Shown one piece after another: positions 1-24,138 of a stretch of 38,319 bases of DNA (positions within the stretch are counted from its first letter, which is position 1; every line of letters begins with the position of its first letter). The stretch comes from Rhodanobacter sp. (GTDB taxonomy: Bacteria; Pseudomonadota; Gammaproteobacteria; Xanthomonadales; Rhodanobacteraceae). The stretch is from NCBI GenBank assembly GCA_031274955.1, contig JAISPQ010000062.1, positions 1 to 38,319 of the forward strand, read 5' to 3'. The translations under genes were made by a program, and so were the position numbers. Under the pieces are notes generated by a model. That model did no database searches. It was not told where the DNA came from and saw only the letters and a program-made list of their open reading frames with translations.

Positions 1-207
1 CGCCGTCATCGGCCCCGTTTTGCAAAGACATCGGCGCGTCGAAGCACAAAACACGCCACGTCGTGCGGCTATCGCACGAAACGAGGGGTGGGGTGCGGGA
101 GTTTTGCAAGAGCCTCATTTGTGCAGAATTTATGTTTTCACTCTACGCCAACGTGTTGATATACTTTAGGAGAGGTGTTTTCCGGCGGGGCAGTTGGCGC
201 GGCAGCG

Positions 208-305: not shown

Positions 306-1744
306 GCCGTTTTGTGTGGAATTTGCCATATCATGAAGCATGATGGTAGGCGCCGAACTTGCGAGGAATGGCGGGCGCCATTGGGTTGGCCGACAGATGC
401 TTGAGTTTGGACATGCGCAGGTAGGCAATCGCGATGAAGCTCTTCACGTCGCGAAAACCGCGCGCGGCTCGCTTGGCTTGTTGGAGCAGGCCATGCATCG
501 CTTCGGCATAGACGTTGCTGCGTTCGTCGAGCATGTCGCGCATCACGCCACCGAAGTGCGTCTTGATGGTCTTGGCCAAACGCTTGAATGGCACCAAGCG
601 AGAGTACCGCGCCCAGCCTATTCATTTGCTCAGTCCGGCTTGGGCAACATCTTGGCTATTGCTGGCCACCGCTTCGTGATAGACCCGTTGCAGTGCCATC
701 TTCAAGCGCCAAGCCCACGCACTCTTCAAGTTCGATCATTGCAGCCAACGCATCGCCTTGCACTGCGCGCGGCTCCATTGCTCGGGATTCTTGCACATCG
801 CTCACAACAACTGTTTGCGCGTGTCCTTGTCATCCAGGCCTGCGGCTTGCGCCACGGCCTGAGCCGAATCACACATCTCCTGGCGGCGCATTTCGTCCAT
901 CGCCTCATTGGCCAGCGCCACGACGTGAAAGCGGTCATAGCTGATCTGCACCTTGGGCAGCGACTCGGTGATACCCAAGGCATAAGCCGCGCTCATGTCG
1001 ATGCAAGCGTGCTCGATATGTTCGGGATCACCGCCGTGCGTGCTCAGGTCGGCAGCAAAGTCCTTGAGCGTCTCATGATCGCGCCCCGCACGCAGTGGCG
1101 AACGGCAGGCGCTTGGCCCGCAAGTCATGCACCACAGTGATGTATTGATGTCCGCGCTTGACGCTGGTTTCGTCCACGCCAACATGATTAACATCGGTCA
1201 TGTCGTCCTTGGCGCGCGCGGCGTGTACATAGTAGTGGACTCGCCGCCACAGGCGTTTGGAAGCCACACGCAACATATCGGCGGCCTGACTGACGGGCAG
1301 TTCCCCACACAGCGACAGCGCCAATGCCTCGAACAGCAAGGTAAAACCGCTGCCTTCACGCGCCCAGAGCACGGTCATCTGCGCGGTCTTGCCGCAAGCG
1401 CCACATTGGATGCGCGGCACATCGGCGTGCAACCACGCCTCGAACTGGAAAAAATCCAAATGGCGTCAACTGCGACGCACCCGATCGTGGATGGGTTGAT
1501 GTTGCGCCCTGCACATCGGACAAGCGGTTCGCTGCGCCGGATACGTGACATCAAAGTCGATACGCCGCTTGGCTGTCTCCAGCTCAACCTTCGATACCTG
1601 CCACGGCGGTTGCAGGCCCTAGGGTGAACAGGCTTTCGATCTGCTGGCTCAGCATGACATCATCTCCGGAGCAAGGCTACGAAGTATACGATGGAATCAC
1701 TTATCGTTATGTTTGCAAAAACGTCAAATTCCCCAGGAAAGAGC
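306..1744 (-). mobile_element. Degenerate ISL3-family insertion sequence
   Basis: Transposase fragments on the - strand bounded by imperfect inverted repeats GCCGTTTTGTGTGGAATTTG (306-325) and CAAATTCCCCAGGAAAGAGC (1725-1744). Length ~1.4 kb fits ISL3. Confidence 0.6.
331..1660 (-). pseudogene. ISL3-family transposase, disrupted by frameshifts and a stop
   Basis: Fragments in successive frames: MLSQQIESLFTLG / LQPPWQVSKVELETAKRRIDFDVTYPAQRTACPMC / FQFEAWLHADVPRIQCGACGK...VGVDETSVKRGHQYITVVHDL / CIDMSAAYALGITESLPKVQISYDRFHV / MVPFKRLAKTIKTHFGGVMRDM. Confidence 0.8.
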
Positions 1745-1801: not shown

Positions 1802-3025
1802 ATGAAGAAGCTCTTGGTACTTGCGCGTGGCGACGGATATGTATTCAACAATCTCGCTGGCGAATCGATCCTCAAGGACTTTCCGGTACCGATCGTCGTA
1901 TTCGCAGAGAAGATCAACACTCATGTTTTCGACGGATTGGAAGGCGACGTTGCAATTGAAATCGTTCGCTACTATGACCTGCCGAATGTCCACGCACGCG
2001 CAGCACGACTACACACTGAACATGGTTTGTTGGGCATTGCCGTACTGACCGAGGAATCGGTCGAACTCGCAGCCGATATGCGGAAGAAATTGAACCTCGC
2101 CGGCACGCCCCCCGAAGAAGCGAAGCGTTTCCGCAACAAAGTGTTGATGAAACAGGTACTCGGTGCCGCAGGCGTGCGCGTTCCGGAGCATGCCGAATGT
2201 AGCGACCGCATGCACGTCGAGAGGTTGTTGACCAAGCACGGGCGACTGGTCATCAAGCCAGTCGATGGCTTCGGCTCGAAGGAAGTGGTGTTTGTTAATT
2301 CAGATGCCGAACTCGATGCGTGGTATGACAAAGGAAAATCAAAGGGCTTTGAGGCGGAAGAGTACATCAAAGGTACGCTATACCATGTCAATGCCCTAGT
2401 AAGGAACGGCGAAGCAATTTTAACTGCAAGTGCGCCTTATCTACCGGGAATGGGTAATATCGATTTTTCGAGCGGTGCCCCATTTGTAAGCGTAATGCTA
2501 ATTGCGGGCGAGCTAAAAGACCGACTCGAAGTCTTTTCCAATGATGTCATCCGTATTCTTGGTATGCAGGATGGCGTAACACACATGGAAGTCTTCCTTA
2601 AAACTGATGGAGAGATCGTGTTCTGTGAAGTCGGGGCTCGCCCGGGCGGCGGCGGTATCGTGTTGATGATCGAAGCGCAGTACGGTATTAACTTCGTGCG
2701 CGCTTCACTGTTGTTGCAGGCAGGCCGAGGCGATCTGGTCACGCTCGAGCAGCGCAGCCCGAACAAAATGGTTGGATTGATGGGCTTCCGGCACACATAT
2801 TCCTCGTTCATTGTCCGTATAGCTAAACCTGAAGCGTTTAACGAAGATTGGATTCATTTCGTGAAAATTGACAAGAAAGAAGGTGATTTCATTGCCCCTT
2901 CTGGACACTGCACCGACTTTATCGGTCTATTGATCTTTTCAGCTGCGGATTTGGGTGAATTCGAGCGCCAACGCGTCAATTTACAGCAACGTTTCTACTC
3001 CGCATTGGAAACGAAAGCTGTTTAG
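1802..3025 (+). CDS. ATP-grasp domain enzyme (putative amino acid/peptide ligase)
   Basis: 407 aa intact ORF; ATP-grasp motifs RLVIKPVDGFGSKEVVFV and MEVFLKTDGEIVFCEVGARPGGGGI. Confidence 0.8.
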   Translation: MKKLLVLARGDGYVFNNLAGESILKDFPVPIVVFAEKINTHVFDGLEGDVAIEIVRYYDLPNVHARAARLHTEHGLLGIAVLTEESVELAADMRKKLNLAGTPPEEAKRFRNKVLMKQVLGAAGVRVPEHAECSDRMHVERLLTKHGRLVIKPVDGFGSKEVVFVNSDAELDAWYDKGKSKGFEAEEYIKGTLYHVNALVRNGEAILTASAPYLPGMGNIDFSSGAPFVSVMLIAGELKDRLEVFSNDVIRILGMQDGVTHMEVFLKTDGEIVFCEVGARPGGGGIVLMIEAQYGINFVRASLLLQAGRGDLVTLEQRSPNKMVGLMGFRHTYSSFIVRIAKPEAFNEDWIHFVKIDKKEGDFIAPSGHCTDFIGLLIFSAADLGEFERQRVNLQQRFYSALETKAV

Positions 3026-3125
3026 CTAAGGAAACTCTGATTTATTCAATTCCCGCCATCTCAGCATATTGATTTTTTATTTTATGTTTTCAGCGTAAAT
3101 TTGAATAAATCAGAGCTTCCCTAGC
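3025..3125. repeat. MITE-like / hairpin element with 25-bp inverted repeats
   Basis: GCTAAGGAAACTCTGATTTATTCAA (3025-3049) versus reverse complement of TTGAATAAATCAGAGCTTCCCTAGC (3101-3125): 23/25 identical, separated by an AT-rich 51-nt loop. Confidence 0.75.
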
Positions 3126-3301
3126 GGTGGAAACACCGGAGATTACACTGAGCAGGGCGAAGGGAAGTCGCCCATCTCATCGAATCGGGACTACCTGTCG
3201 ACAAGAGTGTTGCAGTGGGACTTGAAATCGCCCAAGGCCGTAATTCTTTACTACCCGTTTGAAATAGATCTCGTTCATGCTGAACTGGCAGATAGCAATT
3301 T

Positions 3302-5887
3302 ATGACTGAGTCAATCGAAGCGACGCAAGTGCAAACGGAAGCTGTCTCGCCGACCGACATCAAAGTTCCGGCGGAGCACCTGTTCGCCACCGACGAGCCA
3401 TGGGCGTTTTGGCGATGGTCTTGTTTGCGAGGAGCCGGATTTCCCGCACACATGGTACAGAAACTGGCGGCGCCCGCCTGCGCTGCTGCTGCCGATGAAA
3501 TAATGGCTGCGGAAAGGAGTGCGACTGATTGCAAGGCAGAAACGCTTGCCCTATTCCGGCAAGCGTTCGATTCGACTGCAGACGAAGACAAAGAAGCACG
3601 CAAAGCACTGTCCCGTGCTTTGAGTCAGCTCAATAAGGGCAGAGTGCCAGATTTAGCCGGTGACCGATTCGGCGATGCCTGTCGAAAGCTGGCGTCCGCC
3701 TATGCGAAAGTCGACGACGCGCAGAAATCGTTCAAAGCAGAATTCGGCAAGGGAATTCTGGGGATATCGAGCGCCATCCGCGACGTTGCCGAAGACCCCT
3801 ATTTTTGCCAAGCAGTTCTCTTGCAAAACCGCGCGGCGATTCAGCACGTGCGTCACGCGTTTTCTACCAACCCTGTTGAAAAGAGGGGTTCCAAGGAACG
3901 ACAAAAAGAAGAGCTGGTGGCGAGCTACCTCCAGCGTTATTGCGTAAAGAACGACACCATCGGTTTCTTTGGGCCGGTTGGCTGGGCCAAGCTCGGTCGA
4001 GAAGTCGGCGACATCGCTGTTGCTCCCGGTCCCGAGATCGTTGCAACCTCGTCGATCTACTTCGAAAACTGGTGCATTGAAGCGCTGGGGGAAAAGATTG
4101 CGGAGAATCCGGCTGTTCGCCGCTGGATCGCGCCCAGACGGTCGCCCGACTGCTATCTTGACGGAGCCACGCCGCACTCCTCCGCAGGTTTCCTCGATGC
4201 GCTGTCGTCGCGACAGTTGGCTGTTTTGCAACTATGCGACGGCGAAAGAACCGGCCAGCAGATTGCAGCCGCTCTTCTGGGTTCTTCGGACTTCGTCAGC
4301 GATACTGAAATCTACGACCTGCTCGCGGAGTTCACCAACAAAAAAATTCTGGCGTGGGCCTACGATTTACCACTGGTTCTTCATCCCGAAAAATTGCTCA
4401 GACTGCTTCTGAATCGCATTGAAGACGAGGAAATACGTTGGGCGGCGCTGGTTTCCCTCGACAGGCTTGAGCAAGCCAGGGATAACCTCGCGGCAGCTTT
4501 CGGAAACGTCGATCGACTGAATCTTGCAGTCCAGGAACTCGAGCATGTCTTCGAGGACGTGACCAGCAGTGCGTGCAACAGAATGGGCGGCAAAATGTAC
4601 GCCGGCCGCACACTCTTCTACCAGGATTGTCGTCGCGACGTTGACATTGACGTTGGCCCAGACGTAATTGAATCGATTACTCCACCGCTCTCCCTGGTGC
4701 TGAAGAGCGCGCGCTGGTTCAGTCACCGTGTCGCCGAGGTTTGCCGAGAAGGATTCGTCAAGGCACACGCCAAGATGGCGCGCACTCGCTCTGGCAATAC
4801 GGCCGATGTCATACAATTCGCCAAATACCTGCAGTTGCTGCTTTTCAGCCGTAACCCTGCAACCAACATACTTACGCCGGTACTCGAAGATCTTCAAAAT
4901 CGTTGGAAGCGCATTCTTGGCTCGCTCCCTCAGGCACGGCACGTTGAGTATGCAAGCGCGGACCTGAAACCACTGGTCAACGAACTTTTCGAGGCGCCCG
5001 GACCGGGCTGGCCACTCGCGCGTCATCATAGTCCGGATGTGATGATTGGTGCCAACAGCATCGACGCGATTCGTCGTGGAGAGTATTTCTTTGTCCTTGG
5101 CGAAGTTCACGTCTGTGTGAACACATTGAATAACTCTATGTTTGTCGCACAGCATCCTTGCCCGGATGAATTTGCACAGGCTATGGCGAGCGATTTTCCC
5201 GAGGCTCGCCCGGTACTGATGGTCCCACGGACATTTACGCGGGTCACGAATCGAACCGCCGACGGGTGGAATTCTCCTCACGACTATCAGATCGAGGTAT
5301 CGCAAGATTCGATCTATGCTGGCGACCGCTCGCAGGTGATCCCCGTTTCCGCATTTGTCGTGAAGAACCTCGACAACCGTGTCGTCGTATGCACGCGAGA
5401 TGGCCGCCTGCAATTTGATGCCATCGATTTCTTTGCAGAGACGCTCTCGAGGGCTGCGGCCGCCTCGTATGATTTCATGAGAGTGGTCGGTTCTGACGAC
5501 CACAGTCCGCGCATTACAATTGATCGCATGGTTGTAGCCCGGGAGTCGTGGCGCTTTCAAGCGCAGTCCTTGGAGTTTATCCATGAAAAAGACGAACACT
5601 TGCGTTATTTGCAGGCGCGCAGGTGGATGCACCGACATAATTTGCCGCGTTTCGTATTCTTCAAAGTGGCCGTCGAAGTGAAGCCTTTCTACCTGGACTT
5701 CGAGAGCCTGATTTATGTAGAAATTTTCGTAAAAATGATCCGGAAAGTGTTGGCCAGCGATCAGGCTGAGGAACCCGTCCTGGTCTCCGAGATGGTTCCG
5801 GACCACGGGCAATTGTGGCTACCCGATGCCAAGGGCAACACCTATACGAGTGAGTTTCGATTGGTCGTCAAAGATCTTTTACCATAA
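3302..5887 (+). CDS. LanB-like lantibiotic dehydratase, N-terminal-domain type (possible PEARL-like aminoacyl-tRNA-dependent enzyme)
   Basis: 861 aa; motifs NDTIGFFGPVGWAKL and LPRFVFFKVAVEVKPFYLDFESLIYVEI typical of Lant_dehydr_N proteins; no recognisable SpaB_C/elimination domain. Confidence 0.75.
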   Translation: MTESIEATQVQTEAVSPTDIKVPAEHLFATDEPWAFWRWSCLRGAGFPAHMVQKLAAPACAAAADEIMAAERSATDCKAETLALFRQAFDSTADEDKEARKALSRALSQLNKGRVPDLAGDRFGDACRKLASAYAKVDDAQKSFKAEFGKGILGISSAIRDVAEDPYFCQAVLLQNRAAIQHVRHAFSTNPVEKRGSKERQKEELVASYLQRYCVKNDTIGFFGPVGWAKLGREVGDIAVAPGPEIVATSSIYFENWCIEALGEKIAENPAVRRWIAPRRSPDCYLDGATPHSSAGFLDALSSRQLAVLQLCDGERTGQQIAAALLGSSDFVSDTEIYDLLAEFTNKKILAWAYDLPLVLHPEKLLRLLLNRIEDEEIRWAALVSLDRLEQARDNLAAAFGNVDRLNLAVQELEHVFEDVTSSACNRMGGKMYAGRTLFYQDCRRDVDIDVGPDVIESITPPLSLVLKSARWFSHRVAEVCREGFVKAHAKMARTRSGNTADVIQFAKYLQLLLFSRNPATNILTPVLEDLQNRWKRILGSLPQARHVEYASADLKPLVNELFEAPGPGWPLARHHSPDVMIGANSIDAIRRGEYFFVLGEVHVCVNTLNNSMFVAQHPCPDEFAQAMASDFPEARPVLMVPRTFTRVTNRTADGWNSPHDYQIEVSQDSIYAGDRSQVIPVSAFVVKNLDNRVVVCTRDGRLQFDAIDFFAETLSRAAAASYDFMRVVGSDDHSPRITIDRMVVARESWRFQAQSLEFIHEKDEHLRYLQARRWMHRHNLPRFVFFKVAVEVKPFYLDFESLIYVEIFVKMIRKVLASDQAEEPVLVSEMVPDHGQLWLPDAKGNTYTSEFRLVVKDLLP

Positions 5888-6069
5888 GTCAGAAATATAG
5901 GCGACACTCGGATACCTGAAGAACGAGCGAACCAAGCCAGAGCGCGCCGCGATGCCAGACAACGGTGTGTACACTCGATCAGCCAGCTTTTCGCCTGCGC
6001 GCTACCGAGTAAAGCTGAGGCAATGCAGAACGACATCAAACCAACCTTACCTTTTTGGAGATCATGATC

Positions 6070-6387
6070 ATGAGCACTATCAAACTAGTGGACTGCGAAC
6101 ACATCATCGATGCGAACAGCGCCAACTTGACTGGTAGCAAGTTTCAAGATGTAAGTTTAGCGGAATCGCACTTCCATAGTGTCACACTTGAATCGTCTAC
6201 GATTTCGAATGCGCACTTTGGTGGTATTACATTTACTGAGATAAATTTCACGGGAACGTCGATAAGAAATGCGGATCTCACAAACTTGTCCATCGAGAGT
6301 TGCTATTATACGGGGATGAAAATCGAAGGTATCGAAGTAGAAGAAATGCTGGCTCTCTATCGTGCCTCGAAGGCCTGCAGCGCGTGA
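6070..6387 (+). CDS. Small pentapeptide-repeat protein
   Basis: Repeating A(N/D)LxxxxF-type pentads (SANLTGSKFQDVSLAESHFHSVTLESSTISNAHFGGITF...NADLTNLSI). Start at 6070 (MSTIKLV) preferred over the 6055 ORF start. Confidence 0.7.
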   Translation: MSTIKLVDCEHIIDANSANLTGSKFQDVSLAESHFHSVTLESSTISNAHFGGITFTEINFTGTSIRNADLTNLSIESCYYTGMKIEGIEVEEMLALYRASKACSA

Positions 6388-6480
6388 TCGCGAGGCCATA
6401 ATGCGCAATGTCGAGCAGTGACTGCGCAAAATCTATGCGCATCACGCTATGAGGACGCAATTTTTTCGGAGATAACGAGA

Positions 6481-7620
6481 ATGGATTTAGGGGATAGCAT
6501 CCGCAAGAGCATCACCGACCTGCTTGGCAGCGGGCAGGGAAATGTCGCTACGCCTTGTTACATTTATTCGGTAGAGCAGGTTATCGAGAATTTCAAGGAC
6601 CTCAAGGAGGTGCTCGGTACGCCGCTCGTGGTGTCGCTCAAGGCGAATCATTGCCCAGAGCTGTTGTCTAGAACTGCGTTCAACTTCGACGACGGATGCG
6701 AAGTGGCTTCGCTCGGTGAATTGCGCCTACGCGCGGGAACGCGTCGCAAGACCTATATCAACACACCCGCCTATACTAGGAAGATGGTCGAGGTCGCTTC
6801 GCGCTACAACGCGACCTTCATCATCGACTACGTCGCCCAATTGGATATCATTGCTGAAGTCAAGCAGCAGGGTGTATTCAACAATAGCGTACTTCTGCGC
6901 CTGAATTTCGACGCGGCCAGGAACGAGAACGCGCCGCCGAAAGACCATTTCGGCATGGACACAAAGAGCCTGTTCGAGGCGGCCGCCAAGGCAAGGGATA
7001 TGAAGGTGAAGGTCGCCGGGTTGCATATCTTCTGCGGCTCGAACGGCTTCGTGGATAAGTCGATGGCCTGCGTCGAAGCTGTGGACAAACTTTTCGATGC
7101 GGTAGGTAAAACACTGGGTTATCCACTCGAGGTAATCAACCTCGGCGGCGGCATTCCTTCCGACTGGCGCGAGAAGAACATCGATTTCGCGAGCTATCGG
7201 GCATCATTGCAGCCGCTGCAGCGCAAGGCCGAGGTCATTCACGAGGCTGGACGCGCGATCTTCGGATCAGCCGGCTATTTTGCGACTGAGGTCGTGAGTG
7301 TCAAGTCCATCGGTGCGAAACGTTTCGTCATCTGCGACGGCGGCATGACGCAGAACTTCCTGCTGGCCAAAACTGAACATGTAATCCGCAAATACGATCG
7401 ACCGACCTTGATCAGTGAACGCCTCACCGATGAGACTCGTGACTATACCTTCGTCGGTGCGTCGTGCAATCGCGACGACATCATTGGCGAATACAGAGAT
7501 TGTCCCCATGAAATCCTGCCAGGAGACCAAATCGTGTTCGGTCAGTGTGGCGCCTACAACGCAGTCTATACCGTCAACAAATTTCTAGCGCTGAAACACT
7601 ACGGCGAGTACATCATCTGA
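6481..7620 (+). CDS. Fold-type III PLP-dependent decarboxylase (ornithine/diaminopimelate decarboxylase-like)
   Basis: PCYIYS...VVSLKANHCPE (PLP Lys), HFGMD, GLHIFCGSN, NLGGGIPSDW, EAGRAIF, GASCNRDDIIGE, FGQCGAYNAVY. ATG at 6481 follows GGAG; ORF track starts at 6418. Confidence 0.8.
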   Translation: MDLGDSIRKSITDLLGSGQGNVATPCYIYSVEQVIENFKDLKEVLGTPLVVSLKANHCPELLSRTAFNFDDGCEVASLGELRLRAGTRRKTYINTPAYTRKMVEVASRYNATFIIDYVAQLDIIAEVKQQGVFNNSVLLRLNFDAARNENAPPKDHFGMDTKSLFEAAAKARDMKVKVAGLHIFCGSNGFVDKSMACVEAVDKLFDAVGKTLGYPLEVINLGGGIPSDWREKNIDFASYRASLQPLQRKAEVIHEAGRAIFGSAGYFATEVVSVKSIGAKRFVICDGGMTQNFLLAKTEHVIRKYDRPTLISERLTDETRDYTFVGASCNRDDIIGEYRDCPHEILPGDQIVFGQCGAYNAVYTVNKFLALKHYGEYII

Positions 7621-7628
7621 AGGATATG

Positions 7629-7655
7629 CAGGGGGCTAATCTTGCCCCTGTTTCT
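7629..7655 (+). terminator. Putative terminator after the + strand decarboxylase gene
   Basis: CAGGGGGCTAATCTTGCCCCTGTTTCTCT hairpin plus T-rich tail in the convergent intergenic region. Confidence 0.45.
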
Positions 7656-7759
7656 CTGACTCCAAGATCATCTGATCCACGCTAGGCGAAAAGCTCCCCA
7701 ACGTGCACCCCTGCATCTGGCACGAAGATGATCCTCATAATACATACGCGACGCCGCCC

Positions 7760-8197
7760 TCAGATGCTCTGGTACAACGTCATGCTGGCTTTGGCGACTT
7801 CTTCGTCCTTGCACATCGACGAGCACGAGAAGCGACAAAACCTAGACGAAGTCGCTCCGTCATCCAGGACGCTCAACGGTTTTGCCTGCATATCGATAAC
7901 ATCGCCGGGTCGCACCGGTTTTATCAACTTCACCCGCTCAATCGAAGCAATGAATCCCCCCGCTTTCTTACCCAGCCGCCAGTTGAACCAGGCACGGCAC
8001 GATTGAGCCATGCTTTCCACCAGGATTACGCCTGGTACGATCGGCTCGCCGGGGAAATGGCCGGCGAAGAACACTTCGTCACCGACGTAACGATAAGACG
8101 ATCTAATAATGCCGTCTTCATCGCTGAAGCCGGCTTCATTTACGAACCGGAAAGTTGTAGCCTGTTTTAGGTACAAATCGAGGTCAATACGTTCCAT
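7760..8197 (-). CDS. FabZ-like 3-hydroxyacyl-ACP dehydratase
   Basis: Hotdog motif FFAGHFPGEPIVPGVILVESMAQS. Start at 8197 (MERIDLDLYL), 1 nt after the upstream stop. Confidence 0.8.
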   Translation of the reverse strand: MERIDLDLYLKQATTFRFVNEAGFSDEDGIIRSSYRYVGDEVFFAGHFPGEPIVPGVILVESMAQSCRAWFNWRLGKKAGGFIASIERVKLIKPVRPGDVIDMQAKPLSVLDDGATSSRFCRFSCSSMCKDEEVAKASMTLYQSI

Positions 8198-8198
8198 G

Positions 8199-8624
8199 CT
8201 AGCGTCCGCTGATGACAATACCGACGCTCCCAATCACGGCGAGCTGCTCCTCTGAATACACTTGAAAATCGAACTCGTACAAGGTCGATCGCTCACTCAC
8301 CAATCGCGATTCCAGTCGCAATGGTAAACGCAAGGCTTCGCGAATCTTGTGCTCAATGCCACGGAACGATGCGATGACTCCATGTGATCCTTCCTTCTTG
8401 CGATCTCGAAGAACCAGGCCCGAGGATTGCGCAGCAAACTCCAAAACTGCGTAGGTATCTACCCATAGCGCGTCCGCGAAACGCTCCGGCAAACAGCGTC
8501 CATGCAAAAATTCAGTCACCACTCGGACTTCGTCCAAATAGCGCACCCGGTCGACGAACCGGAACGGCGCCGTTTGGGCGAGCCCATCGATGAGGCGCGC
8601 GGATTCGGCTTCGCCCACCTCCAT
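8199..8624 (-). CDS. Second hotdog-fold, diverged dehydratase-like protein
   Basis: 141 aa; APFRFVDRV...ADALWVDTYAVLEFAAQSSGLVL resembles the FabZ/ApeP scaffold without a clear HF..PG active-site motif. Confidence 0.55.
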   Translation of the reverse strand: MEVGEAESARLIDGLAQTAPFRFVDRVRYLDEVRVVTEFLHGRCLPERFADALWVDTYAVLEFAAQSSGLVLRDRKKEGSHGVIASFRGIEHKIREALRLPLRLESRLVSERSTLYEFDFQVYSEEQLAVIGSVGIVISGR

Positions 8625-8628
8625 CTAA

Positions 8629-9411
8629 TCAGTTTCTCGACAATGCGGTCTTGGTGAACATCGAATCCGGATACGTCGCCTTCTCGTATTCGCTCATCTT
8701 CATCCACACCGCGCTCGACGCACGAATGCCATCGACGATGACAATCTTCTCAACTTTTGGACCGCCCGCGTAGTCGTGGAAAGCCTTGTATTGGATGGTT
8801 TTGAGTAATCGCTCTGAAGCGGTGTAGTGCCGGCTTTCGACCGGCCTGTCCGTGACAAGATCGTAATCGAGATCGATGCGTGCATAGGTTGCGCCGACAT
8901 CCTTGCTCTTCAGGCCTAACTGCAACAGTTTTCCGTCCGTGGATTTGTGGCTGGACTGGATGGTGTAGTCGTTGAGGTAGGACACATTGAGCACATCGGC
9001 AATCGAAGCTGCGCCAAACACGCGCTGCAGCGGTGCGATCCGAATGATGTTCGCGCTGCTCGGCAAGTACAACCACAGGTCGCGATCGCGCAACAAGGTG
9101 CGGCGTCCGCGCTGATTCTTTGGCTCGAGCACCTCGATTAGCGCGTAACCCTTCTCGCTGATCTTCACTTCCAACTGGTGCTGATCTGAGTTGACACCAT
9201 TCTCAACGGTGATCACCTCAGCCGTGAAGTGGAATCCCGTCCCCCGGAATCCACGAAGATATTCCATGTTGCCGAGGATTCGGTTTGTAACCTGCTCGCT
9301 TACTGCGGATGGAACGGCCGCCGCGCTCGGACTCGCGTCCGACACTGCGGCGAAACAAAAGTTCGCGTGCAGCGCGGTGAGCGTGATGAAACATTTGCTG
9401 ATAAGTTTCAT
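8629..9411 (-). CDS. LolA-like outer membrane lipoprotein-sorting protein
   Basis: Start at 9411 (MKLISKCFITLTALHANFCFA, signal peptide); GYALIEVLEPKNQRGRRTLLRDRDLWLYLPSSANIIRIAPLQRV is characteristic. Confidence 0.75.
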   Translation of the reverse strand: MKLISKCFITLTALHANFCFAAVSDASPSAAAVPSAVSEQVTNRILGNMEYLRGFRGTGFHFTAEVITVENGVNSDQHQLEVKISEKGYALIEVLEPKNQRGRRTLLRDRDLWLYLPSSANIIRIAPLQRVFGAASIADVLNVSYLNDYTIQSSHKSTDGKLLQLGLKSKDVGATYARIDLDYDLVTDRPVESRHYTASERLLKTIQYKAFHDYAGGPKVEKIVIVDGIRASSAVWMKMSEYEKATYPDSMFTKTALSRN

Positions 9412-9421
9412 GGTTTTTTCC

Positions 9422-10645
9422 TCAGCGCTGCATCGCTTCATTGATCGGCAACTTGCCCGCTCGGTACGCTGGGAAGAAGCCGCCCACAACTGTTGCGACG
9501 AGCGATAGCGCCGCAGGAAGCAGGAGGATGTTGTTATTGAGCAGAATACGCAGCGGATACGAGAATGTCGATCCCGGTGGTGTTGGCATTTTTATGTTGG
9601 CGAGATTGATCAAAAGGGCAATACCTGCGCCGCATGCGACGCCGAGGATGACGGCGAGTATTCCGACCACGAGTCCTTCCGACATCACCATGACCAGTAA
9701 GTTGCCGCGCGACGCACCGAGCGCGCGTATGGTAGACAATTCCGAAACCCGCTCCATCACCGCCATCGTCATCGTGTTGAAGATTGCTGCGAAAATAATG
9801 ATGACCACTAGCACGGTCACGAACCCGAAAATGTTGTCGAACATGGTCACGATCTGATGATATTGATCGGACATGTCGGACCAGGATTTGACCTCAACTC
9901 CGCCGCCTACGCTCGCCGCTGCCGCGCGAATCCTCGTATCGGTCTGAGGTGTTTGCCGATCCTCATCGAGCAACACCACGAGATTGGTCACGGCGTCGGA
10001 CAGCAGCGTTTCCTGCATCAGGGGCAAGTTGATCTTGATGAAACGTTTGTTGAGTTCTTTAGCGCCGGTATCCATCACGCCGGTAACCTTCACGTCGACG
10101 GCGTTGATCGCTCCCTCCGAGGTCGTGACGAGAATGGTGAGCGCGTCACCCAGCTTTGCTCCCAATTCCCCCATGAGCTCACGGCCGACCAGTGCCCCGC
10201 TCTGGTTTCCTGCGAATAGCCCGGTGCCTTGAACGACCTTGACTGCATTGCTGATCTCGGCGTCTTTGTCTGCTTCGACGCCAAAGATCAGCACGCCTAC
10301 GGATTTATTTCCGAACGACACGAGACCCTGCGCCTCGATGCGCCGAGTGACCAGCCTGACCTCATCGAGCGACTTGAGGGTGTCCTCGATTCGTGTGGTC
10401 GTACCGGCATCAAGCAAGCTCTTCGCATACGACTCCTTGGCCTGCACGGTGGAAAAGATTTGGTAATGGCCCAATTGCGAATAAATACTGCCCAAGCGAA
10501 TTCCTTCATAAATCTGTGCGATATAGCCACCGAACAGGATCAAGCTGATCGTGCCGATCACGATTGCAACGCACGCGATCATGTTCTTGCGCCAGTCACG
10601 AACGACGTTGAGCAGAATCAACTTCGCGAAAAACGACAGGTACAT
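9422..10645 (-). CDS. ABC transporter permease, FtsX/MacB/LolCE type
   Basis: 407 aa; N-terminal TM, periplasmic domain, C-terminal TM block VMERVSELSTIRALGASRGNLLVMVMSEGLVVG... Confidence 0.85.
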   Translation of the reverse strand: MYLSFFAKLILLNVVRDWRKNMIACVAIVIGTISLILFGGYIAQIYEGIRLGSIYSQLGHYQIFSTVQAKESYAKSLLDAGTTTRIEDTLKSLDEVRLVTRRIEAQGLVSFGNKSVGVLIFGVEADKDAEISNAVKVVQGTGLFAGNQSGALVGRELMGELGAKLGDALTILVTTSEGAINAVDVKVTGVMDTGAKELNKRFIKINLPLMQETLLSDAVTNLVVLLDEDRQTPQTDTRIRAAAASVGGGVEVKSWSDMSDQYHQIVTMFDNIFGFVTVLVVIIIFAAIFNTMTMAVMERVSELSTIRALGASRGNLLVMVMSEGLVVGILAVILGVACGAGIALLINLANIKMPTPPGSTFSYPLRILLNNNILLLPAALSLVATVVGGFFPAYRAGKLPINEAMQR

Positions 10646-10646
10646 G

Positions 10647-11318
10647 TCAGACGTCCGCTGTTAGGATTGCGCGCATTTGTGGCTGGCCGCCTTGTTGCGT
10701 CAGTTGCCACTCGACTTCAGCGAGCGTCTCGCGCGCGCTCGTCTGCAGGTCGAGTGAAAGCTCAGCAAACCGCAGATTGTTTGTGGCCAACCGCTGATCG
10801 TCGCGGGCGACTTCGCGCTTACCCATGAATTCGGGGACTCTCGCCGCGGTCATACCGCAATTGAGCCGAGCCGTGATGTTGTCGGGATACTTGCTCACCG
10901 CGCGGTTCGAGATAATGGAACCCTTCGGCCGAATAGGTGCCGGCCTGCTGCGGACTGTCGATATGGAATGCCACCTTTTGCGCGAGTAGAGCGCGCCGAG
11001 CGCCGACATCAGCCCGACCTCGGACAGCTTCGCCCTGTCTACATTCAGTTTGTCGGACTGCGTCATCAATACCTTAATCGCAGCCGCATCGGTGTCGAGG
11101 CGATCTTCAGTCAACGCGCGATCCGCTATTGCCGAGGGAACTTCGGCAAGCGTCTTTTCGGCAGCCTGTTTGTACGAGCTTTCGTTCAGCTTTCCGGAAA
11201 TATCGGGACTGTTCTGCGCTACAGGTGCGTCAACCGCGGATTTGCCGCAGGCGCTGACGACGAGCGCGATGAGCAGTGCGGCAATAAGAGGGAGAAATGA
11301 CTTGAACATGTGTGCCAC
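10647..11318 (-). CDS. Periplasmic lipoprotein associated with the ABC transporter (possible compensated frameshifts)
   Basis: Lipobox LIALVVSAC after a signal sequence; lies between permease and ATPase genes. The middle segment reads better in an alternative frame. Confidence 0.6.
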   Translation of the reverse strand: MAHMFKSFLPLIAALLIALVVSACGKSAVDAPVAQNSPDISGKLNESSYKQAAEKTLAEVPSAIADRALTEDRLDTDAAAIKVLMTQSDKLNVDRAKLSEVGLMSALGALYSRKRWHSISTVRSRPAPIRPKGSIISNRAVSKYPDNITARLNCGMTAARVPEFMGKREVARDDQRLATNNLRFAELSLDLQTSARETLAEVEWQLTQQGGQPQMRAILTADV

Positions 11319-11327
11319 CCTCGAGTT

Positions 11328-11984
11328 TTAAAGAAGTCTTCCATCTTGCATGTTTAGCCGACGCACGGCACTGTCGGAGAAATCGCGGTCATGTGTGGCG
11401 ATGACCAAGGTGACGCCTTTTTCGTGATTCAAGCGCTGCAGCAGTTGATAGACGATCTGCGTGTTCTCGGTATCGAGGTTCGCGGTCGGCTCGTCGGCGA
11501 TAATCAATTCCGGTTTCTTCGCGAATGCGCGCGCGATCGATACCCTCTGCATCTGCCCACCGGACAACTGCTTGGGTTTGCGATCGGCGAAAGCATCCAT
11601 GCCGACATCGGCGAGCGCTTGTATTGCCTTGCTCCTCGCCTGCCGGTCCTTGAGCATGTATAGTGGGTACATCACGTTCTCGACTGCGGTCAACGTCGGA
11701 TGCAGGTTGAACTGTTGAAAAATGATGCCAATCTTTTGCCGTCGAATCTGCGCAAGTTCGGCATCGGAAGCATCGCTCACCCGCCTATCATCAAAGCTCA
11801 CATCGCCCGAGGTGGGTTGGTTGATCAGCCCGAGAATTCCCAACAACGTGCTCTTGCCGCTGCCGCTCTTGCCGGTGACACAGATCAATTCGCCGCGGTC
11901 TATGCGCAGTGTTACATCGCGCATGGCGAACGACCGTACCTGACTGTTCGCATATTCCTTGCTGACATTCTCTAGGACGAACAT
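11328..11984 (-). CDS. ABC transporter ATP-binding protein, MacB/LolD type
   Basis: Walker A GKSGSGKST, signature LSGGQMQR, Walker B ELIIADEPTANLD, H-loop ATHD. Confidence 0.95.
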   Translation of the reverse strand: MFVLENVSKEYANSQVRSFAMRDVTLRIDRGELICVTGKSGSGKSTLLGILGLINQPTSGDVSFDDRRVSDASDAELAQIRRQKIGIIFQQFNLHPTLTAVENVMYPLYMLKDRQARSKAIQALADVGMDAFADRKPKQLSGGQMQRVSIARAFAKKPELIIADEPTANLDTENTQIVYQLLQRLNHEKGVTLVIATHDRDFSDSAVRRLNMQDGRLL

Positions 11985-11987
11985 CGA

Positions 11988-12527
11988 TCAATGCTCCCCG
12001 ACATTCGGATTGATGGAGTATTCGAACATCGCAGGCAGCGTGCTGATCACGTCGCTGATCTTTGCTAGTGCTGCATTGTTGAGCCGATTACCAGTCGGAC
12101 TGATCCACCGGATCGAGAATTTGTTGTCGCCGGCGGACCAGGAGTAGAGCTTGAAGTTTGCGTCCACGCACAGGTGATCGGTCCCCCTAGCAATCAGTTC
12201 TTCGCTCTCTGCCGCGAGGTCGTAGAAAATGGCAACGCGCGGGTCCAAAAGACTGGGTGGAAGCGCAATGACCGCTGGCATCTTCACTCGCACAAGAACG
12301 AGCCGCGCGATATTTTCCTGTAGCACGGTCTCAATCAGTCGGTCGAGGAAACGATAGTATTCATAGAACGAGATCACCAGCGGCAGATCCTCGTTGAAGT
12401 GCAACTGCAACGGAATATGCAGCTCGTCCTCGGCGAACAATGCATTGCTCAACAACGCGGGAAGAATCTCGCGCTTGCGCATACCTACGTCCAGTCGTCC
12501 CTGAAACCCTTCGTTGATCATGCTCAT
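11988..12527 (-). CDS. Hypothetical protein in operon
   Basis: 179 aa, overlaps the upstream CDS by 4 nt and is packed in the - strand operon; no family recognised. Confidence 0.6.
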   Translation of the reverse strand: MSMINEGFQGRLDVGMRKREILPALLSNALFAEDELHIPLQLHFNEDLPLVISFYEYYRFLDRLIETVLQENIARLVLVRVKMPAVIALPPSLLDPRVAIFYDLAAESEELIARGTDHLCVDANFKLYSWSAGDNKFSIRWISPTGNRLNNAALAKISDVISTLPAMFEYSINPNVGEH

Positions 12528-13363
12528 GCGTGGCCTTCAATACAGATTCTCGAATGCGCATTTGTCATCACGGACAGGAAGCAACAGTAGCCTTCAGACG
12601 CAAAAGAAGAAGCAAGATAACGTTTGCTTCCGGCACCTGCGCTAGCGACGTCTCTGGCGATCGACATCCATGGATCCGAACCGCACAGATGTCCAAACTC
12701 CTCGTACAGATCCGGCAGGTACTCAATTCCGTCCATGCTGCGTTTGAGTCCTTTGCGCATCTTCTCCTCGAAATAGGGAATCGCGAGCGTGTGATCCGGA
12801 TGACTAGCCATGGTTCGCTGGATTTCGAGTGCGTAGTCGTAGAGCGCTGCGGTCGGGTTGCACTTGCTGACGGTAATTGCGCGAGCAGGATGATTCGGCA
12901 TACCATCGCCGACTTGCTCCGGGCTTTGCAGATGCACCAGCGTGACCCGATGCCCGGTCTTACCCCAGGAGACGTTGTTGTCCCAGAAACGCATTCCGAG
13001 TGGGTTCGCGTCCACGACCGAGATCAGGATGTTGCGAACGTCGGGCTTGTTGATCAGGTGCTGGCGAACCAGAAATCCCCAAGTTGCGCACTGCATCGCG
13101 TTGGAGTAGGAGCAGCGCAGGCCCGACGCTGCCTGAATCTTCCGAGTCAACGCTACCGGCTCGAACCAACCGGCCGAACAGGTGATATCGAGCGTTGAGC
13201 TACAAATATAGTGAGCGAACCCGCCGCCGCATGAACTGGACATGGCGCGCGCGACGAACCCACCCAGTTTTTCAGTCAGACGATCGACGAACACTTCGGA
13301 CGCGAGCCCGTCGAGAAAAACGCTCCTCGAAATGTCGATGTTCTTGATCGCCAAGGCTGTCAT
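12524..13363 (-). CDS. Divergent thiolase-fold / KAS III-like ketosynthase or acyltransferase
   Basis: 279 aa; SSTLDITCSAGWFEPVALTRKIQ, NAMQCATWGFLVRQHLI (candidate catalytic Cys), DLYEEFGHLCGSDPWMSI near the C-terminus. Confidence 0.6.
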   Translation of the reverse strand: MTALAIKNIDISRSVFLDGLASEVFVDRLTEKLGGFVARAMSSSCGGGFAHYICSSTLDITCSAGWFEPVALTRKIQAASGLRCSYSNAMQCATWGFLVRQHLINKPDVRNILISVVDANPLGMRFWDNNVSWGKTGHRVTLVHLQSPEQVGDGMPNHPARAITVSKCNPTAALYDYALEIQRTMASHPDHTLAIPYFEEKMRKGLKRSMDGIEYLPDLYEEFGHLCGSDPWMSIARDVASAGAGSKRYLASSFASEGYCCFLSVMTNAHSRICIEGHA

Positions 13364-13364
13364 C

Positions 13365-14399
13365 TCAGCGTATCTTGACTTTGCTGTAGATCTCGAATAG
13401 GCAGCGGTAGGAGCTGCCTTCCATGCGCGTGAACGCCATGAGGTCGCGCTGGATGGATGGATCGGAGACCGTTTCGGAAGTCACCAGGTCCAACAACAAC
13501 CGGTTCGAGGCGAACTTGATGGCGAGGGCTGCCGGCAAGCTCGGCTTCCTTTCCACCAATCCGTGGTAGTAGGTTTTGGCGATTGCTTCCAGCGCCGTCG
13601 CGCTACTGCGTTGTTGTGGCGAAAGCGCAATTCTGCCGTTCGCGTCGAGCCACTTCACGTGCGCCATCAACGCGCGAACGAAGCGCGGCCGCACCTTCGA
13701 CAGGAATATCGAAGTGGACACGAGACCTCCGCGGGTGAGCATGCGTGACTTCGGTACAGTGACTTTGCCGCTGACATTGCCCAATTGCAGGGTGCCGTCC
13801 AAGAACGGCGTACCAGACGCTGTCTTCTTGAGTTTGGCGAATTCGTCCGGCGGCACCAAGATCGAAGTCGGATAGAGCTTCTGTGTCGACGCGGCGGAGA
13901 CCGAACCGAAGTTCAACCGATGCCCTTCGATGATCCAGACCTTGTCTACGTCGAGCGCCAGCACCTCGCCATCGTTGGCAAAGACCGTATTCCATTGCTG
14001 TATCGAGCTGCCGCCGGCATCGGCCATCAGGAAGCCGCCGAACTGCGCGATCCCGCTTTCGTGCCAAGACGCAACTTCCGCCTGTTGCGCGTCGCTGGCG
14101 ATCATGCTGAACAGCAAACTGCCGAATTCACGGACCAGCGCATGAAAATTGCCACCGTAAAATCCTTCAGCGCAAATGGTCAGTTGGATCTTCTCGATGC
14201 ATTCCTCGATCGGACCGAACGACGTGCGTGCGTTACTCGCAATGGCCTTGCCTTGCCCAACCGCGAGGCAATCGTTCCCGTCGATGATCATTTGCGTGTC
14301 GACCGTCGATACGACGCCGGCCTTGATCACGTGCTTCAGATAAGTCGGGACGTCGCCGAGCTCTGACAATCCAGCGACGATGCTTTGATCCAACTGCAT
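13365..14399 (-). CDS. Diverged acyl-CoA dehydrogenase-like protein
   Basis: 344 aa; FGGFLMADAGGSSIQQWNTVFANDGEVLALDVDKVWIIEGHRLNFGSV is reminiscent of the ACAD middle domain; weak recognition. Confidence 0.45.
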   Translation of the reverse strand: MQLDQSIVAGLSELGDVPTYLKHVIKAGVVSTVDTQMIIDGNDCLAVGQGKAIASNARTSFGPIEECIEKIQLTICAEGFYGGNFHALVREFGSLLFSMIASDAQQAEVASWHESGIAQFGGFLMADAGGSSIQQWNTVFANDGEVLALDVDKVWIIEGHRLNFGSVSAASTQKLYPTSILVPPDEFAKLKKTASGTPFLDGTLQLGNVSGKVTVPKSRMLTRGGLVSTSIFLSKVRPRFVRALMAHVKWLDANGRIALSPQQRSSATALEAIAKTYYHGLVERKPSLPAALAIKFASNRLLLDLVTSETVSDPSIQRDLMAFTRMEGSSYRCLFEIYSKVKIR

Positions 14400-21309: not shown

Positions 21310-24138
21310 ATGTCCCACTCAGTCCCGGGTTCATTTGATCTGCTCCGCAGGTCATTTCATGTGTCCCCGCACATATCCCCCAATCATCCAAGCACCCCTC
21401 CCCCGCGTAGTTCTTGCCTGAAGGTATTTCTCGCCGGTCTGTTGCTGGCCCTGCTGGCACCCCTGGCCTCGGCGGCAACGATCATCGTTACCACCAACAG
21501 CGATGCCGCCAGCGGCGTCGGCACCGCCGCCAACTGCCCCGGCGCCAATTGCAGCCTGCGCGATGCCATTGCCAAGGCCGCTGCGGGCGACACCATCAAC
21601 TTCGCGTCGTCCATCTCCACGATCGCGCTGGCCGGTTACGAGATGACCGTTGACAAGAACCTGAGTATCGACGCCTCGGCCATCACCGGCGGCGTGACCA
21701 TCGACGGCACCTTGGCGGCGCAGAACAGCAGTCGCCGCGTATTCCAGGTTTCCGGCACTTTGGGCACCCCCAGCACCGTCAACTTTAATAACCTCACCAT
21801 CAAGAATGGGGCCGGTGGTATCGGCCAGGGTAGCTATACCACGCTCACATTGACCAACTGCACCGTGACGGGCAACGATGCAGGCAGCTTCAGGACCGGC
21901 GGCGGCATTGCCAGTTCGTCACAGAGTGATCTCACATTGATTAACAGCATCGTGTCCAACAACAAGGCGGGCGACTATGGCGCCGGCATCAGTAGCAACG
22001 GCGCCTCACTCACGCTGATCAACAGCACCGTCTCGGGTAACACGATTACGACGACTGGTGGCTGGGCCGGTGGCATTTTCTCCAGCAATACAGTCACTCT
22101 GACCAACAGTACCGTCTCAGGCAATACAGGCTACTTTGGCGGCGGTATCGACATGGATGGGGGGACGCTCACGATAAGCAACAGCACCATCACGGGCAAT
22201 ACGGACCCGGGTGGTGAAGGTGACGGTATTGAGCTTTGGAATGGGGCGACTGCCACGCTGATCAACACGACGCTGGTTGGCAATGGCAGCGTGGATTTGT
22301 ACAACAGTAGCTCCCACTCCGGCACCGACCCCAAGCTCGTGCAGTTGACCAACACCCTGATCGGCGCCTGTGATGACACCACCGGCGGTCTGGGCGAGAT
22401 CGCCGACAACGGCGGCAACCTCGACGGCGGCACCCAGTGCGGTTTTCCGGCCGCAAGGAGCAGCATTTCCTTTGGCTTGGGCGCGCTGGCCAACAACGGC
22501 GGCCCGACGCAGACGATGAAGCCCCTGCTCGCCACCAGCGCCCCGGTCGGCAAGGGCGTGTTGGCCGCCTGCACTGCCGCCCCCATCAGCGGCGCCGATC
22601 AGCGCGGCTACGTGCGCGGCACGGCCGCCTGCGACAGCGGCGCGGTGGAATACGCCGGTACCGAGCCGACCTACAAACTGACCCTGACCGTCACCGGCGC
22701 CGGCGGCGGCAGCGTGACCGATACGCTGACTCCTACGCATGAAATCAACGCCTGCGATTCCACCACCAGCCCCTGCGTGGGCAACTACCCGAATGGCCCG
22801 GTGACTTTGGTCGCCTCGCCCACTGCGGGTTATTCCGTGACTTGGAGCGGCGCCTGCGTGCCCGATTCCGCCAATCCGCTGCAAGCGACAGCCACCATGA
22901 ACGGCACCGCCCTGGCGTGTACCGCCGCCTTTACGCCGCCGCAGCCCTACACGCTGTCGGTCACCGTGGCCGGCCCCAGCGGCGCCGGCAGCGTCAGCGA
23001 TGATCTATCGCCGCACGTGATCGATACCTGCACCGTGGCCGGCGGGGCCAATTGCAGCGGCAGCACCAGCGGCAACGCCAGCAATCAGGTCACGCTGACG
23101 GCGAGTGCCAATGCCGGTTACAGCTTCAGCGGCTGGAGCGGCGCCGATTGCAGCGGCTCGGCCAGTACGGCCACGCTGACGATGACCGCTGACCGTAGCT
23201 GCACCGCCACGTTTGCGCGCACGCCCCATACGCTGACGGTGACCGTGGCCGGCCCGGGCGGTGCCGGCAGCGTGAGCGATGATCTATCGCCGCACGTGAT
23301 CGATACCTGCACCGTGGCCGGCGGGGCCAATTGCAGCGGCAGCACCAGCGGCAACGCCAGTAATCAGGTCACGCTGACGGCGAGCGCGAATGCCGGTTAC
23401 AGCTTCAGCGGTTGGAGCGGCGCCGATTGCAGCGGCTCGGCCAACACGGCCACGCTGACCATGGATGCCGACCGCGCTTGCACCGCCACGTTCGCCCTGA
23501 TCACCCATACGCTGACGGTGACGGTGACCAACGCGGGCGGCAGCGGCAGCGTGACGGATAACCAGACGCCGCCTGTGATCGATGCTTGCACCGCCACGGG
23601 CGGCACCTGCAGCGGCAGCGCCGGTGGTGCGGTGACGCTGACCGCTGCACCGGACGCGGGTTCGGCCTTTGGCGGCTGGGGCGGGGATTGCGCCAGTGCT
23701 GCCACGGCGCTGACGGCCACGGTAACGATGGACCAGGCGCGCACGTGTTCGGCGCAGTTCATCACGCCGCCACCGGTGACAATCGCGCTCACCATCACGG
23801 TGAACGGCGGCAGCGGCGGTAGCGTCAGCGCTCCCCCGCAAATCACCAACTGCACGTCCACCTGCTCCGGCAATTATGCCCCCGGCTCGTCGGTGACGCT
23901 GGTTGCCAGTCCGGCCTCGGGTTACGCCTTCGCCGGGTGGGGCGGGGCTTGCGCTGGTGCATCGCCGACGGTCACCGTGACGGTAAACGCGGCCACCACC
24001 TGTACGGCAGGATTCAGCGCGTTGGGGCCACCAGCACCGGGCTCGACCACCGGCGTGCCGATGCTGGATCGCTGGGCGCTGCTGGTGCTGGCGGTGCTGC
24101 TGGGTTGGACGGCGTTGCTGGTACGGCGCAAAGTGTAG
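21310..24138 (+). CDS. Secreted beta-helix (CSLREA / choice-of-anchor Q-type) protein with InlB-like repeats and IPTL-CTERM-like C-terminal anchor
   Basis: Signal/TM segment FLAGLLLALLAPLASA; GANCSLRDAIAKAAAGDTINFA; LTNSTVSGN-type beta-helix repeats; repeated AGYSFSGWSGADC; C-terminal VPMLDRWALLVLAVLLGWTALLVRRKV. Confidence 0.8.
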   Translation: MSHSVPGSFDLLRRSFHVSPHISPNHPSTPPPRSSCLKVFLAGLLLALLAPLASAATIIVTTNSDAASGVGTAANCPGANCSLRDAIAKAAAGDTINFASSISTIALAGYEMTVDKNLSIDASAITGGVTIDGTLAAQNSSRRVFQVSGTLGTPSTVNFNNLTIKNGAGGIGQGSYTTLTLTNCTVTGNDAGSFRTGGGIASSSQSDLTLINSIVSNNKAGDYGAGISSNGASLTLINSTVSGNTITTTGGWAGGIFSSNTVTLTNSTVSGNTGYFGGGIDMDGGTLTISNSTITGNTDPGGEGDGIELWNGATATLINTTLVGNGSVDLYNSSSHSGTDPKLVQLTNTLIGACDDTTGGLGEIADNGGNLDGGTQCGFPAARSSISFGLGALANNGGPTQTMKPLLATSAPVGKGVLAACTAAPISGADQRGYVRGTAACDSGAVEYAGTEPTYKLTLTVTGAGGGSVTDTLTPTHEINACDSTTSPCVGNYPNGPVTLVASPTAGYSVTWSGACVPDSANPLQATATMNGTALACTAAFTPPQPYTLSVTVAGPSGAGSVSDDLSPHVIDTCTVAGGANCSGSTSGNASNQVTLTASANAGYSFSGWSGADCSGSASTATLTMTADRSCTATFARTPHTLTVTVAGPGGAGSVSDDLSPHVIDTCTVAGGANCSGSTSGNASNQVTLTASANAGYSFSGWSGADCSGSANTATLTMDADRACTATFALITHTLTVTVTNAGGSGSVTDNQTPPVIDACTATGGTCSGSAGGAVTLTAAPDAGSAFGGWGGDCASAATALTATVTMDQARTCSAQFITPPPVTIALTITVNGGSGGSVSAPPQITNCTSTCSGNYAPGSSVTLVASPASGYAFAGWGGACAGASPTVTVTVNAATTCTAGFSALGPPAPGSTTGVPMLDRWALLVLAVLLGWTALLVRRKV
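22969..23526 (+). repeat. Tandem 279-bp (93-aa) near-identical in-frame repeats
   Basis: GATGATCTATCGCCGCACGTGATCGATACCTGCACCGTGGCC starts at 22999 and again at 23278, with long near-identity on both sides. Confidence 0.9.

What the first reader, a model, noticed from the sequence alone, without database searches (positions are those of the whole stretch)
1802..14399. Hybrid putative biosynthetic locus: LanB-like/ATP-grasp/PLP module facing a lipid-type operon with its own Lol/Mac-like exporter
Seen: four + strand genes (ATP-grasp, LanB-like, pentapeptide-repeat, PLP decarboxylase) converge on nine tightly packed - strand genes (ACAD-like, KAS III-like, unknown, ABC ATPase, lipoprotein, FtsX/MacB permease, LolA-like, two hotdog proteins). 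Transposon debris flanks both sides. Knowledge: LanB/ATP-grasp enzymes act in RiPP and aminoacyl-tRNA-dependent peptide pathways; KAS/hotdog/LolA-like combinations occur in aryl-polyene-type pathways. Inference: the two halves may make and export an acylated amino acid/peptide-like envelope metabolite. I do not recognise this combination as a described cluster. No ACP, ketoreductase or thioesterase is visible, so it would rely on host ACP/CoA pools, or the halves may be unrelated neighbours.
Basis: partly seen in the sequence, partly recalled or inferred. Interest (0 to 1): 0.85.

Follow-up and report, generated by a model that had tools for sequence, protein, structure and literature searches.

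The report
Afc-type lipopeptide locus with a PEARL
This low-GC island carries about half of a nonribosomal lipopeptide pathway related to the Burkholderia antifungal AFC-BC11 machinery, with a tRNA-dependent ligase-like enzyme added that the known versions lack, so it looks like a variant of a recently solved peptide-making route rather than two unrelated gene groups.

Summary
The 13 genes are real and lie in a low-GC island (about 54%, against 64% to the right). They are not random neighbours: eight (PLP decarboxylase, ACAD-like, KAS-like, 'unknown', ABC ATPase, lipoprotein, FtsX, LolA-like) have homologs in one co-directional operon in two other, unnamed gammaproteobacterial genera (11 genomes hit, 10 regions compared). 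Seven of the eight have homologs in the Burkholderia afc cluster, which makes the lipopeptide AFC-BC11 without condensation domains (PMC12186527). The '+' strand decarboxylase is the AfcP homolog, so it ties the two halves together. ATP-grasp, LanB-like and pentapeptide genes were found in no other afc-type locus. The LanB-like protein groups with actinobacterial proteins often encoded beside NRPS/ACP genes, has no elimination domain, and keeps candidate residues of PEARLs (aminoacyl-tRNA peptide ligases). Best reading: an afc-type lipopeptide pathway with PEARL/ATP-grasp extension and its own Lol-like export; a new variant of a known kind. The product and the PEARL step are inferred.

The parts
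1802..3025 (+). ATP-grasp ligase; nearest solved structures are L-amino-acid ligases (BL00235 and 4wd3)
   Evidence: Pfam PF13535 5.6e-11; PDB 3vot 6e-13, 4wd3 6e-11
3302..5887 (+). LanB-like protein, probably a PEARL-type aminoacyl-tRNA-dependent peptide ligase
   Evidence: PF04738 4.5e-33; 30-37% to actinobacterial 'lantibiotic dehydratases', several beside NRPS/ACP genes; invariant R43, R212, D579, E601, R747, F786, E851-x-R853
6055..6387 (+). small pentapeptide-repeat protein, role unknown
   Evidence: PF13599 3.7e-11
6418..7620 (+). AfcP-like PLP decarboxylase (predicted to act on carrier-bound aspartate)
   Evidence: 36% to AfcP, 1e-59; in plasmids Burkholderia AfcP comes first at 195-208 bits, next listed record 97 bits; 37-41% to decarboxylases of two other gamma genera
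7760..8233 (-). FabZ/FabA-like dehydratase (hotdog)
   Evidence: PF07977 6.6e-14; FabZ 4.5e-18, below cut-off
   Evidence: no Pfam/NCBIfam match
8629..9411 (-). LolA-like periplasmic protein (AfcH-like)
   Evidence: PF17131 5.3e-24; AfcH 24%, 2e-8
9422..10645 (-). LolCE/FtsX-type permease (AfcG-like)
   Evidence: lolCE 5.8e-28, below cut-off; AfcG 29%, 3e-34
10647..11318 (-). lipoprotein with a paralog on contig C23
   Evidence: 34% over 207 aa, 5e-34
11328..11984 (-). LolD-type ABC ATPase
   Evidence: LolD 9.2e-63, below cut-off; 41% to the afc ABC domain
11988..12527 (-). AfcM homolog
   Evidence: profile comparison E 4e-6, 25% over 96 columns
12524..13363 (-). AfcL-like KAS III-related acyltransferase; Cys92/His225/Asp230
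   Evidence: 29% to AfcL, 9e-22; Cys92 aligns with AfcL Cys111
13365..14399 (-). AfcJ-like acyl-CoA-dehydrogenase-related protein
   Evidence: 36% to AfcJ, 2e-55; best PDB folds of the model are ACADs incl. TcsD and ColB1 (pLDDT 50)
800..1460 (-). ISL3 transposase remnant bounding the island on the left
   Evidence: PF13542, PF01610
14483..14809 (.). IS-like remnant bounding the island on the right; a relative (75-89%) lies beside the C23 cluster

Best explanation
The locus is roughly half of an afc-type lipopeptide pathway on a horizontally acquired island, with an added PEARL-type module. An AfcQ-like A domain loads an amino acid, probably Asp, on a small ACP (both encoded on contig C23). 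The window's AfcP-like decarboxylase turns it into a beta-amino acid on the carrier. ACAD-type enzymes (window AfcJ-like, C23 AfcE-like) desaturate it. The acyl part is made or trimmed by FabG/KAS/hotdog proteins, and the AfcL-like enzyme takes the acyl-peptidyl chain on Cys92 for transfer. [quoted passage not shown] the ATP-grasp ligase would make a further amide bond. The LolD-like ATPase, FtsX permease, lipoprotein and LolA-like carrier move the product from the inner membrane toward the outer membrane. Shown here: gene homology, synteny in other genera, residue conservation. Inferred: every reaction and the product.
For: Homology of window genes to AfcP, AfcJ, AfcL, AfcG, AfcH and the afc ABC ATPase and to AfcM. 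A single operon joining AfcP, AfcJ, AfcL, AfcE, ACP, ABC, lipoprotein, FtsX and LolA homologs in two other gamma genera: nine genomes of one, G1344 of another, full layout in G1097 with an AfcM-like gene. C23 of the same MAG: ACP, AfcE 41%, AfcO 34%, AfcQ 29%, AfcR 26%, second AfcL 32%. AfcL catalytic residues kept. LanB-like relatives lie in NRPS/ACP clusters, as for SnaE (PMC11212132). PF14028 was not found in the MAG, and reported PEARL residues have conserved candidates. Chemistry of afc: PMC12186527.
Against: C23 and the window are not shown to be joined; both contigs begin in multi-copy repeats and the MAG is 81% complete with 3.6% contamination. No clear AfcA (fatty acyl-AMP ligase) ortholog was found, and genes for the AFC malate-fatty-acid part are not seen in window or C23. 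The PEARL residue match rests on order and spacing, not on an alignment with a PEARL. No other afc-type locus seen carries the LanB-like, ATP-grasp or pentapeptide genes. The PF14028 search had no ringing control.
Confidence: 0.62

Rival explanations
1. The afc-type core is real, but ATP-grasp, LanB-like and pentapeptide genes belong to a separate small pathway that was dropped next to it by the mobile elements.
For: No afc-type locus seen elsewhere has them; the LanB-like protein was not found in 60 relatives or 398 other Pseudomonadota genomes; gaps of 276 and 167 bp.
Against: They are co-directional with the AfcP homolog, the pentapeptide gene only 30 bp before it; relatives of the LanB-like protein occur with ACP, A-domain and PLP genes.
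Confidence: 0.3
2. The island is a decaying, non-functional remnant, split by transposons.
For: Transposase debris on both sides, two contigs, and missing AfcA/AfcN-type genes in window and C23.
Against: All 13 ORFs are open and tightly arranged; catalytic residues of the AfcL homolog are kept.
Confidence: 0.15
3. The LanB-like protein is a true dehydratase half (glutamylation) and the product is a RiPP-like dehydrated peptide.
For: PF04738 match.
Against: No PF14028 match in the MAG and no precursor peptide gene noted; nearest relatives are largely NRPS-associated.
Confidence: 0.06

Closest known systems
afc cluster of the Burkholderia cepacia complex (AFC-BC11), PMC12186527
   Same: AfcP, AfcJ, AfcL, AfcM, AfcG, AfcH and ABC homologs in the window; ACP, AfcE, AfcO, AfcQ, AfcR-like genes on C23
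   Different: 24-41% identity, split over two contigs, a second AfcL and FabG/KAS/hotdog genes; ATP-grasp, LanB-like and pentapeptide genes added; citrate synthase, O-methyltransferase and AfcN not seen
afc-like operon of two unnamed gammaproteobacterial genera (G783, G1061, G1081-G1097; G1344)
   Same: gene order AfcJ-AfcL-AfcM and ABC-lipoprotein-FtsX-LolA; decarboxylase 37-41%
   Different: one operon, with an FAD-dependent halogenase-like and an alpha/beta-hydrolase-like gene (named by eye), no LanB-like or ATP-grasp homolog found
PEARLs, including NRPS-associated SnaE (PMC11212132, PMC11962472)
   Same: PF04738 homology, no elimination domain found, conserved candidates for ATP and tRNA contacts
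   Different: no carrier peptide gene noted; substrate unknown; no activity shown
LolCDE/LolA lipoprotein sorting
   Same: LolD- and LolCE-like scores and a PF17131 LolA-like partner
   Different: all scores below the NCBIfam cut-offs for the true Lol proteins; genes sit in a biosynthetic operon

Membership tests
afc-type (condensation-domain-free) lipopeptide cluster | AfcP-type decarboxylase in the cluster | tested here: met
   36%, 1e-59; best plasmid hits are AfcP
afc-type (condensation-domain-free) lipopeptide cluster | AfcL with Cys/His/Asp triad | tested here: met
   Cys92, His225, Asp230 invariant; Cys92 aligns with Cys111
afc-type (condensation-domain-free) lipopeptide cluster | one carrier protein and an AfcQ-type A domain | tested here: inconclusive
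   both on contig C23 of the same MAG, not shown to be linked
afc-type (condensation-domain-free) lipopeptide cluster | fatty acyl-AMP ligase AfcA | tested here: inconclusive
   only partial matches scattered in the MAG
afc-type (condensation-domain-free) lipopeptide cluster | product is an N-acyl beta-peptide | not testable with these tools
   needs metabolite analysis
PEARL | PF04738 homology | tested here: met
   4.5e-33
PEARL | no PF14028 elimination domain nearby | tested here: met
   no match in the 13 proteins, none in the MAG; control genomes did not ring either
PEARL | ATP- and tRNA-contact residues | tested here: inconclusive
   candidates conserved in 8 sequences against residues in PMC11962472; no PEARL sequence was aligned
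PEARL | aminoacyl-tRNA-dependent peptide ligation | not testable with these tools
   needs enzyme assay
class I lantibiotic dehydratase | glutamate elimination domain PF14028 | tested here: not met

The most novel reading that the evidence does not exclude
A hybrid route in which a condensation-domain-free, ACP-tethered beta-peptide is finished by aminoacyl-tRNA-dependent (PEARL) and ATP-grasp ligation, replacing the Lys-CoA release step of AFC-BC11.
Probability: 0.35. Interest if true: 0.75.

Novelty: new variant of a known kind. Interest (0 to 1): 0.6.

Why it matters
The afc pathway was only solved in part in 2025 and is described for Burkholderia; how its peptide is finally released was left without an enzyme (PMC12186527). 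Finding afc-type operons in other gammaproteobacterial genera, and one with a PEARL-like protein, gives new members for comparing which genes are core, and a concrete candidate for tRNA-dependent chain extension in a carrier-protein pathway.

Tried and rejected
A genome-contig scan with AfcJ patterns found only Burkholderia; it did not report the gamma genera found later, so the pattern method misses members and absence elsewhere is not shown. An AfcJ search of 369 genomes of the class and LanB-like searches of 61 and 399 genomes found only the MAG itself. The AfcL homolog in 299 genomes of the order gave one further weak hit, G109 at 4e-4, whose neighbours did not look related. AlphaFold of the AfcL homolog was too poor to use (pLDDT 35). 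An attempt to join C23 to the window by contig ends failed: the ends are repeats. A PDB search with the LanB-like sequence alone found nothing; with the family profile, TbtB weakly. A paper search for LanB-like, PEARL and ATP-grasp terms together found none. Aryl-polyene and RiPP readings were considered and dropped once the afc homology was clear.

Full report
What is there. The window is contig C212 of a 2.7 Mb MAG in 250 contigs, 81% complete. The stated 13 ORFs exist in a low-GC stretch between ISL3 remnants and Mu-type transposition genes. The LanB-like gene was not found in 60 relatives and the AfcJ homolog not in 368 other genomes sampled from the class, which fits recent acquisition.

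Identity of the '-' operon. Pfam names only some genes. A tblastn search of plasmids with the KAS-like protein found three Burkholderia records. The surrounding cluster has, beside a LysR gene, AMP-ligase, ABC, FtsX, LolA-like, ACP, KAS, decarboxylase and ACAD genes. I identify it as the afc cluster from gene content and order in PMC12186527 and PMC6301696; the letter assignments to ORFs are mine. Direct comparison gives AfcP 36%, AfcJ 36%, AfcL 29%, AfcG 29%, AfcH 24%, ABC 41%, and AfcM by profile. The published catalytic Cys111 of AfcL is residue 111 of the Burkholderia ORF and aligns with window Cys92. For the AfcJ-like protein the model is weak (pLDDT 50), but its first 16 PDB matches are ACADs or ACAD-fold flavoproteins, and an AfcJ profile weakly matches ordinary ACADs.

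Do the halves belong together? Yes, at least through the decarboxylase. An AfcL profile found one further genome, G783; AfcJ then found ten genomes of its genus, G783 included, and G1344 in another family. Nine regions of that genus (all but G1073) and G1344 were compared with the window, C23 and afc proteins. Each carries, in one direction, AMP-ligase, AfcP, AfcJ, AfcL, AfcE, ACP, ABC, lipoprotein, FtsX and LolA homologs; the lipoprotein is mostly detected through its C23 paralog. The layout in G1097 also shows an AfcM-like gene, an outer-membrane protein and others. ABC-lipoprotein-FtsX-LolA and AfcJ-AfcL-AfcM keep the window's order. In G783 the ABC and FtsX genes read in two frames each, possibly frameshifts.

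The missing pieces. Contig C23 of the same MAG holds an ACP, AfcE-, AfcO-, AfcQ-, AfcR-like and a second AfcL-like gene, FabG, a KAS fusion, a small thioesterase-like ORF (by eye), a lipoprotein 34% like the window's, and a relative of the same IS-like remnant. Both contigs begin in repeats found on other contigs, so linkage is open.

The LanB-like and ATP-grasp genes. The LanB-like protein is 30-37% identical to actinobacterial proteins, several encoded beside A-domain, ACP, MbtH or NRPS genes (L005 has no such neighbours). Yu and van der Donk characterised one such NRPS-associated enzyme, SnaE, as PEARL-like (PMC11212132). Residues reported for BhaB7 (Arg34, Arg208, Asp558, Glu575, Arg715, Phe755, Glu813, Arg815; PMC11962472) have candidates R43, R212, D579, E601, R747, F786, E851, R853, invariant in the eight-sequence alignment. 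Tyr205 matches Y209, which is not invariant. R747 and F786 fall in the block that aligns with TbtB. This matching is by order and spacing only. The ATP-grasp is nearest to L-amino-acid ligases among solved structures; its plasmid relatives are varied.

Verdict. New variant of the afc kind. That the core is afc-type I put near 0.85; that the LanB-like protein works in it, near 0.5; the overall statement, with linkage to C23 and the extension step, at 0.62.

Noticed in passing
L027 (Gemmobacter fulvus plasmid p1): An alphaproteobacterial cluster with an AfcQ-like A domain (37%), ACPs, KAS III and an AfcP-like decarboxylase in the same ORF as an ACAD, next to ABC/FtsX genes.
   Followed up: partly
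L004, L028, L029 (Streptomyces plasmids): Two LanB-like genes with A domain, PLP enzyme and ACP (L004, L028); one with methylaspartate mutase, ACP, AMP-binding and ATP-grasp genes (L029).
   Followed up: partly
L040/L041, L084/L085: The gamma afc-like operon carries an FAD-dependent halogenase-like protein and an alpha/beta-hydrolase-like protein (by eye).
   Followed up: no
L008 10260-11368: afcJ reads as two ORFs in Burkholderia sp. FXe9, so it may be frameshifted there.
   Followed up: no
window 1-119 and C23 1-118: Dispersed repeats of about 115 bp at contig ends, ending in TTTTGCAAGAGC.
   Followed up: partly
window 21310-24138: Large repetitive surface-like protein ending in a hydrophobic VPMLDRWALLVLAVLL segment, resembling an IPTL-type sorting tail (by eye).
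   Followed up: no
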